From NCBI RefSeq assembly GCF_007164525.1, contig NZ_AP019791.1, positions 2,157,501-2,221,500 of the forward strand: 64,000 bases of DNA. Direction: 5' to 3'. A program made the translations under genes and the position numbers. This DNA comes from Rubrobacter xylanophilus (lineage in GTDB: Bacteria; Actinomycetota; Rubrobacteria; Rubrobacterales; Rubrobacteraceae). Under the pieces are notes generated by a model. That model ran no database searches and was not told where the DNA came from. It saw only the letters and a program-made list of their open reading frames with translations. Below are positions 34,646-36,363 of the stretch, one piece after another (the first letter of the stretch is position 1; every line of letters begins with the position of its first letter).

Positions 34646-35380
34646 ATGAACCGCAGGCTCGAGGTGGGCGAGCGCTTTCCGCTCTTCGAGCTTCCCGACG
34701 AGAGGGGAACGCCCTGGAACCTCTCCGGGCAGCTCATGCTGGGACCTGCCATGCTCGTCTTCTACCGGGGCGACTGGTGACCGTACTGCAACGGGCAGCT
34801 GGTCAGCTACGCCAGGAAGTTCGATGAGTTCCGCGCCCTCGGGGTACAGCTCGCGGGCATCAGCGTTGACCCGCCGGAGAACAACGCGGTCATGGTCCGC
34901 AAGCTGCTTCTGCCCTTCCCGCTGCTCTCCGACCCCCGGGGGGAGCTGGCCCGCCGGTGCGGGCTCTGGAACGGGCGGGAGCGGGTGGCCGTCCCGGCGC
35001 TGGTGCTGGTGGATCACTCCGCAACGGTGCGCTATCTGTACGCCGGGCGGGACTTCGCCGACCGGCCGGGGGATGAGGAGGTGTTCGCCGCCGCCCGCGA
35101 ACTGGAGGACGGAGCACCGCCCGAGGACGAGCCGGAGGTGGTGGCCACCCCGGCGGACGCCGGAGCGAGCACTCGTCCGGAGAGGGCGCCGCAACGGCTG
35201 GAGGACCTCCCCGTGTACTACCGGGGGGTGTACTTCGCCACGGTGGCGCTCGGCGGGCGGTTCGAGAGGTGGGGGGAGCCGGGCCTGCGGGCGCTCGGGG
35301 AGGTGATCCGCTACCGGAAGCTCATTGAGGACTATCGGAAGGCCGTGAGGGAGACCCTGAAGTTGCGGGAGGGAACGTGA
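34646..35380 (+). CDS. Peroxiredoxin-like selenoprotein with in-frame UGA (selenocysteine)
   Basis: One frame of 245 codons from ATG 34646 (GGGAGGAGG upstream) is interrupted only by TGA at 34778-34780, codon 45. It reads FYRGDW-UGA-PYCNGQLVSYARKF, where the AhpC/TSA-like family has FYRGxWCPYC, so the UGA falls exactly on the peroxidatic Cys and would form a UxxC motif with Cys48. Downstream, GISVDPPENN and FPLLSDPRGELARRCGLW are typical peroxiredoxin. A hairpin with GGUC loop follows the UGA. It would be a thiol/selenol peroxidase. A nonsense mutation is the alternative, but the intact frame and exact position argue for Sec. An extra C-terminal region of about 75 residues is unassigned. The last codons overlap the next gene (GTGA). 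Confidence 0.85.
34794..34813 (+). promoter_or_regulatory. Candidate bacterial SECIS hairpin
   Basis: GGC-AGCU, loop GGUC (34801-34804), then AGCU, a 2-nt bulge AC, then GCC: a 7-bp stem. The loop starts 20 bases after the UGA (34778-34780), within the spacing known for bacterial SECIS elements, and its GG-containing apical loop resembles that of E. coli fdhF. It lies inside the coding sequence, as bacterial SECIS elements do. Confidence 0.72.
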
Positions 35381-36363
35381 AGATCTTTCTGGAGGAGAGA
35401 CGCCGCAGGCCCCGGGCGCTCTGGAGGCTGCTTCTGCAGTTCGCCCTGTTCGCGCTGCTCGCCGCGCTCTTCACCAGCCTGTTCGCCGCCGTATGGTTCG
35501 TGCTCGGGCCGCGGGCCAGCCCAGCGGCCCCGGATGCCGGGCGGCTCGCCTCCTCCCCCGCGCTCTTCCTGCTGAGCACCCTGGCCTCGCTCGCGGCAAC
35601 GCTGCTCAGCCTGTGGCTGGCCGGCCGCTACCTCGACCGCAGACCCTTCCGGGACTTCGGCTTTTGCATCGACCGGGGATGGTGGTTGGATCTCTTCTTC
35701 GGCATGCTGCTGGGGGCGCTCCTGATGAGTGGCATCTTCCTGGTCCAGCTCGCCCTCGGATGGGTGGAGGTCGTGGGGACCTTCAGCTCCGATCTGCCGG
35801 GGGTGCCCTTCCGGACCGCCATCCTGCTGCCGCTCGCCATCTTCGTGTGCGTCGGCGTCTACGAGGAGGCGCTCTCCCGAGGCTACCAGCTCAGGAACAT
35901 GGCCGAGGGACTCAACCACCCGGCGCTCGGTCCGAGGGGAGCCATCGCGGCCGCCTGGGTCCTCTCCTCGCTCTTCTTCGGGCTGCTGCACTTCGCCAAC
36001 CCCAACGCGACCGCGCTCAGCACGCTAAACGTCTCGCTCGCCGGCATCCTGCTCGGCGCAGGCTACGTGCTCACCGGCCAGCTCGCCATCCCCATCGGGC
36101 TGCACATCACCTGGAACTTCTTCCAGGGCGCGGTCTACGGCTTCCCGGTGAGCGGCCTGCAGAGCGCCGGGGCCTCCTTCCTGCAGATCGAGCAGTCCGG
36201 GCCAAGGATCTGGACCGGCGGGCCGTTCGGACCCGAAGCCGGGCTGTTCGACCCGGTGGCCGTCCTCGTCGGCTGCCTGCTGATCGCCCTGTGGGTGAGG
36301 CTCCGGCACGGGAAGGTGGACCTCCTGAAGGAGCTCGCCGGGGGACCGGCCGGGAGGGCCTGA
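35377..36363 (+). CDS. CPBP-family intramembrane metalloprotease
   Basis: Multi-pass membrane protein of 328 residues (CAAX-processing/Abi family). The three motifs are present: EEALSR in VYEEALSRGYQLRN, FFGLLHFANPNA with the catalytic His, and HITWNFFQG. GTG 35377 overlaps the selenoprotein stop, so they are co-translated. The substrate is unknown; some relatives act in bacteriocin immunity or prenyl-protein processing. Confidence 0.87.
   Translation: MKIFLEERRRRPRALWRLLLQFALFALLAALFTSLFAAVWFVLGPRASPAAPDAGRLASSPALFLLSTLASLAATLLSLWLAGRYLDRRPFRDFGFCIDRGWWLDLFFGMLLGALLMSGIFLVQLALGWVEVVGTFSSDLPGVPFRTAILLPLAIFVCVGVYEEALSRGYQLRNMAEGLNHPALGPRGAIAAAWVLSSLFFGLLHFANPNATALSTLNVSLAGILLGAGYVLTGQLAIPIGLHITWNFFQGAVYGFPVSGLQSAGASFLQIEQSGPRIWTGGPFGPEAGLFDPVAVLVGCLLIALWVRLRHGKVDLLKELAGGPAGRA

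What the first reader, a model, noticed from the sequence alone, without database searches (positions are those of the whole stretch)
34646..35380. Peroxiredoxin-like gene with UGA at the peroxidatic cysteine (selenoprotein)
A single reading frame of 245 codons is broken only by TGA at codon 45, exactly where FYRGxWCPYC relatives have Cys. A hairpin with a GGUC loop follows 13 bases after the UGA. This would give a UxxC selenol active site. Random nonsense at this one position is unlikely.
Basis: partly seen in the sequence, partly recalled or inferred. Interest (0 to 1): 0.85.

Follow-up and report, generated by a model that had tools for sequence, protein, structure and literature searches.

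The report
Selenocysteine-containing peroxiredoxin-like oxidoreductase gene
A Rubrobacter gene for a peroxiredoxin-like enzyme uses the usual stop codon UGA to insert selenocysteine in its active site; this is almost certainly real, but it belongs to a kind of selenoprotein already known in bacteria.

Summary
The frame 34646-35380 is broken only by TGA 34778-34780 (codon 45), inside RGDW-U-PYC. The genome has selA, selB and tRNA-Sec(UCA) in one cluster, and selD. The same codon is UGA in 19 genes found in the family and in at least nine other actinobacterial families, with Cys (rarely Ser or Asp) in a minority of relatives. Both sides of the UGA are under purifying selection. The hairpin begins 13 bases after the UGA. 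Its folding energy is unremarkable, but its loop N-GU-N' covaries (G-C 14, A-U 3, C-G 3 of 20; GU invariant), and its codons are kept only where UGA is kept. It is a selenoprotein.

One part of the reading is wrong: U45 is not at the peroxidatic position. It lies opposite the Thr of the peroxiredoxin PxxxTxxC motif; Cys48 lies opposite the peroxidatic Cys, Pro117 opposite the catalytic Arg. The active site is thioredoxin-like (UxxC plus a Pro at the usual cis-Pro place) on a peroxiredoxin fold, matching the known 'Prx-like thiol:disulfide oxidoreductase' selenoproteins (PF00578, UxxC). It is a new member of a known kind. The tree suggests Sec is ancestral in this clade and was replaced by Cys about twice.

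The parts
34646..35380 (+). Prx-like selenoprotein gene, 244 residues with Sec45, ATG start behind a strong purine-rich ribosome-binding site
   Evidence: orthologues
34778..34780 (+). in-frame UGA, read as selenocysteine 45 (first position of UPYC)
34787..34789 (+). Cys48, second position of UxxC; opposite the peroxidatic Cys of peroxiredoxins
   Evidence: alignment; invariant in 23 of 23 family rows
34794..34813 (+). SECIS-like hairpin: 5' arm 34794-34800, loop GGUC 34801-34804, 3' arm 34805-34808 and 34811-34813 with a 2-base bulge
   Evidence: loop positions 1 and 4 covary, GU invariant
34994..34996 (+). Pro117, invariant, opposite the catalytic Arg of peroxiredoxins and at the place of the thioredoxin cis-Pro
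35198..35374 (+). C-terminal helical hairpin (residues 185-243) outside the peroxiredoxin domain, no Pfam match

Best explanation
The gene encodes a Prx-like selenoprotein, probably cytosolic. SelB, carrying Sec-tRNA(UCA), is brought to the UGA at codon 45 by the hairpin 13 bases downstream, and selenocysteine is inserted in place of termination. The protein has a peroxiredoxin fold with a thioredoxin-like active site, R-G-D-W-U45-P-Y-C48 plus invariant Pro117. It most likely works as a thiol:disulfide oxidoreductase or thiol-dependent reductase: the Sec45 selenolate attacks a disulfide or oxidised substrate, Cys48 resolves it to a selenenylsulfide, and a thioredoxin-type donor reduces that. 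Sec insertion is strongly supported by sequence evidence. The catalytic cycle and the substrate are inferred.
For: selA, selB and tRNA-Sec with anticodon UCA lie in one cluster, and selD (itself with an in-frame UGA) is present, all in the same complete 3.02 Mb genome. UGA is at the same codon in 19 family genes and in at least nine other families; Cys replaces it in a minority. dN/dS is 0.1-0.5 upstream and downstream of the UGA against eight relatives. SECIS loop covariation: G-C 14, A-U 3, C-G 3, no mispair. The codons CTR GTY AGC are kept in 17 of 17 UGA genes but in 0 of 9 Cys/Ser genes, which mostly have Ala for Val. The model has pLDDT 93.8 and Z 23 to AhpE. Thioredoxin-like site. Family precedent: PMC1088965, PMC1794560, PMC13188914.
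Against: Hairpin energy alone is not significant. One relative fragment (L035) has two UGAs and a TAG. Two incomplete genomes (G031, G035) have a UGA copy but no selA, selB or tRNA-Sec was found. The substrate and the electron donor are unknown; a peroxidase activity through Cys48 or Sec45 is not excluded.
Confidence: 0.87

Rival explanations
1. It is a true selenocysteine peroxidase: the same recoding, but the main reaction is peroxide reduction at Sec45 or at Cys48.
For: Peroxiredoxin fold and PF00578 match; Cys48 occupies the peroxidatic place; some relatives keep Cys48 but carry Ser or Asp at position 45 (L051, L026), so Cys48 may matter on its own.
Against: The Pro, Thr and Arg of the peroxiredoxin site are replaced by Arg41, Sec45 and Pro117. 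Two relatives have Asp at position 48 (L070, L034). Published classification sets UxxC Prx-like apart from TxxU Prx (PMC1088965).
Confidence: 0.2
2. The UGA is a plain nonsense mutation and the gene is a pseudogene, or encodes a 44-residue peptide plus a reinitiated 162-residue fragment.
For: Standard code reads TGA as stop; an ORF from ATG 34892 exists.
Against: Same codon UGA in many genera and families, purifying selection on both sides, no other stops, Sec machinery present, hairpin covariation.
Confidence: 0.02
3. The UGA is read through as another residue (Trp or Cys) by suppression or by a changed code, without selenium.
For: None beyond the open frame.
Against: This gene itself ends at TGA, the tRNA-Sec has the UCA anticodon, and the relatives' substitute is mostly Cys, not Trp.
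Confidence: 0.01

Closest known systems
Prx-like thiol:disulfide oxidoreductase selenoproteins (PF00578, UxxC/UxxU; PMC1794560 Table 1, PMC13188914 Table 1; 'Prx-like protein' of PMC1088965)
   Same: Peroxiredoxin-type domain, Sec in a thioredoxin-like UxxC motif, bacterial SECIS just downstream, Cys homologues
   Different: Examples named in these papers are mostly from Deltaproteobacteria and marine metagenomes; this actinobacterial clade has RGDWUPYC(N/C)GQLV and a C-terminal helical hairpin. Its sequence was not compared directly with the published representative.
Selenocysteine peroxiredoxin PrxU (TxxU; NCBIfam NF040737)
   Same: Same fold; a selenoprotein
   Different: Sec there is at the peroxidatic position (TxxU). 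Here Sec is three residues earlier and Cys48 sits at that place; score 34.5 against a cut-off of 270.
SelL-related redox protein (NCBIfam NF040769)
   Same: Prx-like with a redox pair at the same two positions (from general knowledge of SelL)
   Different: Score 35.6 against a cut-off of 120; single Sec here.
Mycobacterium tuberculosis AhpE (5id2, 4x0x)
   Same: Closest solved fold, Z 23.4, rmsd 1.6 over 154 residues, 25% identity
   Different: AhpE is described in its PDB titles as a 1-Cys peroxiredoxin; this protein has a UxxC pair and a C-terminal extension.

Membership tests
Bacterial selenoprotein | In-frame UGA aligned with Cys in homologues | tested here: met
Bacterial selenoprotein | selA, selB, selD and tRNA-Sec in the same genome | tested here: met
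Bacterial selenoprotein | SECIS hairpin just 3' of UGA with a small apical loop containing G | tested here: met
   Present and covarying; energy alone not significant
Bacterial selenoprotein | Selenium in the protein | not testable with these tools
   Needs 75Se labelling or mass spectrometry
Prx-like thiol:disulfide oxidoreductase (UxxC) | PF00578 domain | tested here: met
   E 8.6e-29, 100 bits against cut-off 26
Prx-like thiol:disulfide oxidoreductase (UxxC) | UxxC motif replacing the TxxC/TxxU site | tested here: met
Prx-like thiol:disulfide oxidoreductase (UxxC) | Thiol:disulfide exchange activity | not testable with these tools
   No biochemical data; predicted only, also for the published family
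Selenocysteine peroxiredoxin (PrxU) | PxxxTxxU with Sec at the peroxidatic position | tested here: not met
   U45 opposite Thr47, Cys48 opposite Cys50 of A. pernix peroxiredoxin; R41 opposite Pro43
Selenocysteine peroxiredoxin (PrxU) | Catalytic Arg of peroxiredoxins | tested here: not met
   Pro117 opposite Arg126, invariant in 23 rows
SelL-related redox protein | NCBIfam NF040769 score over cut-off | tested here: not met
   35.6 against 120

The most novel reading that the evidence does not exclude
The RGDWUPYC proteins of Actinomycetota form their own, so far unlisted selenoprotein subfamily, in which Sec is the ancestral state, with a C-terminal helical module and (in Rubrobacteraceae) a tightly linked CPBP/Rce1-like intramembrane protease gene, suggesting a redox step tied to membrane protein processing.
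Probability: 0.3. Interest if true: 0.45.

Novelty: new member of a known kind. Interest (0 to 1): 0.3.

Why it matters
Ordinary gene finders stop at the UGA and would report a broken gene or a headless 162-residue protein. Recognising Sec here corrects the annotation in Rubrobacter and many relatives. The clade also gives a clean natural experiment in which Sec has been swapped for Cys (then Ser or Asp) in close relatives, with the hairpin codons released at the same time, so the benefit of selenium at this site can be tested by comparing natural orthologues.

Tried and rejected
Pseudogene or nonsense mutation: rejected by the conserved UGA position, dN/dS and machinery. Hairpin supported by folding energy: rejected; shuffles and synonymous recoding give no significance for the window sequence, so only covariation and codon constraint are used. 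An alternative low-energy fold in which the UGA itself pairs with UCA of the loop was set aside because the relatives with CTA GTT lose its pairs, while the short hairpin keeps its form. Membership in the PrxU and SelL-related NCBIfam families: scores far under cut-off. The C-terminal helical hairpin was not folded or searched alone.

Full report
Observation. The frame 34646-35380 on the + strand starts with ATG behind a purine-rich ribosome-binding sequence and is open to the TGA at 35378-35380, except for one TGA at 34778-34780, codon 45. The read-through protein matches AhpC-TSA (PF00578) over residues 7-130 at E 8.6e-29, that is across the UGA. Thirteen bases after the UGA a hairpin begins, with the loop GGUC at 34801-34804. 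Among 331 TGA codons of the window that have at least 25 open codons on both sides, this is the only one with a UxxC or CxxU motif and such a hairpin.

Sec machinery. The window lies in a complete 3.02 Mb genome; the nearest named record with this gene (84% identity) is a Rubrobacter. The genome has selA (E 1.1e-123), selB (325 bits over a cut-off of 242) and tRNA-Sec with anticodon UCA (68.9 bits over a gathering score of 47; ARAGORN agrees). These three lie within 1198663-1201756. selD is at 358873-359775 and has an in-frame UGA of its own in AGUASK, followed by a strong hairpin (z -3.6).

Conservation. Orthologues in the same family carry UGA at exactly this codon in 19 genes found here, including both members of the genus. 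Eight have TGC; single copies have Ser (L051) or Asp (L026); two diverged copies have CxxD (L070) and SxxD (L034). UGA is also at this codon in homologues from at least nine other actinobacterial families, with the motif RGDWUPYC or close to it. dN/dS against eight relatives is 0.1-0.5 both before and after the UGA, as expected of one translated protein. A tree built with the Sec/Cys column masked puts only UGA genes in the outer lineages and needs two changes of the UGA state, so Sec to Cys replacement within Rubrobacteraceae is the simplest reading (several branches have modest support and the root is a midpoint).

SECIS. Energy gives no support for the window copy (z -0.17 and -0.30; 29% of synonymous recodings do as well). 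The comparative evidence does. In 20 distinct UGA sequences the loop is always N-G-U-N', and N and N' are G-C in 14, A-U in 3 and C-G in 3, never mispaired; no shuffle of 500 reached the covariation score. The shuffle control does not remove shared ancestry, and sliding the register by -1 or -2 columns gives covariation scores as high (0.18, 0.15) while pairing falls to 36% and 19%, so the argument rests on the single loop-closing pair and the invariant GU. In 17 of 17 distinct UGA sequences from Rubrobacteraceae and close kin the three codons over the hairpin top are CTR GTY AGC; none of the nine Cys/Ser genes keeps this triplet, and eight of nine have Ala where UGA genes have Val. G23 and U24 of the apical loop are among the few fixed positions of the bacterial SECIS (PMC8659212), which fits the invariant GU. 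These Cys genes are related to each other, so the contrast counts few independent events.

Active site. The alignment with Aeropyrum pernix peroxiredoxin (2cv4 and others) puts R41, U45, C48 and P117 opposite Pro43, Thr47, Cys50 and Arg126. C50 is the residue mutated in the peroxide-bound structure 3a2w and in 3a2x (titles); that Pro, Thr, Cys and Arg form the peroxiredoxin catalytic set is established knowledge. So only the Cys of that set is kept, and it is the second residue of UxxC. R41, C48 and P117 are invariant in 23 aligned family members. The predicted model (pLDDT 93.8) has the peroxiredoxin fold over residues 1-157, closest to M. tuberculosis AhpE (Z 23.4, rmsd 1.6, 154 residues).

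Comparison with the known. [quoted passage not shown] Rubrobacter xylanophilus is named in PMC1794560 (Table 4) with five selenoproteins, and its tRNA-Sec in PMC5330540. Whether this very gene is in their supplementary lists could not be read. No NCBIfam model reaches its cut-off, so current model-based naming would not catch this subfamily by name.

Mechanism. Shown by sequence: UGA is decoded in this lineage as part of one protein, and Sec is the only reading for which machinery, SECIS and Cys homologues all exist. Inferred: Sec45 is the attacking nucleophile and Cys48 the resolving thiol, as in thioredoxin-like proteins; the reductant and the substrate are unknown. A peroxidase role is a rival at about 0.2.

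Limits. L035 is a fragment with a repeated DW-UGA-PD and a TAG, decayed or misassembled. G031 and G035, 82 and 88% complete, have an intact UGA copy beside a Cys copy, but no selA, no selB over cut-off and no tRNA-Sec over cut-off; as the three genes are one cluster in the window's genome, one missing contig could explain it, or Sec decoding was lost recently.

Noticed in passing
window 35377-36363 (+): A CPBP/Rce1-like protease gene starts with GTG overlapping the selenoprotein stop by 4 bases and is conserved beside the gene in 18 relative loci, in Sec and Cys lineages alike.
   Followed up: partly
L068, L069 (genomes G031, G035): Intact UGA paralogues with the GGUC hairpin in two incomplete genomes where no selA, selB or tRNA-Sec was found.
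   Followed up: partly
L026, L051, L034, L070: Relatives with Asp or Ser at the Sec position, or Asp at the second Cys, so the redox pair has been given up in some lineages.
   Followed up: partly
L071 (own genome C1:358873-359775, - strand): selD of this genome is itself a selenoprotein gene (AGUASK) with a perfect hairpin whose loop lacks the GU of the Prx-like SECIS.
   Followed up: partly
window 35198-35374: C-terminal helical hairpin (residues 185-243) outside the peroxiredoxin domain, no Pfam match, evolving faster than the core.
   Followed up: no
L035 (genome G028): Homologue fragment with DW-UGA-PDW-UGA-PDC, a tandem insertion with two UGAs at the active site.
   Followed up: no
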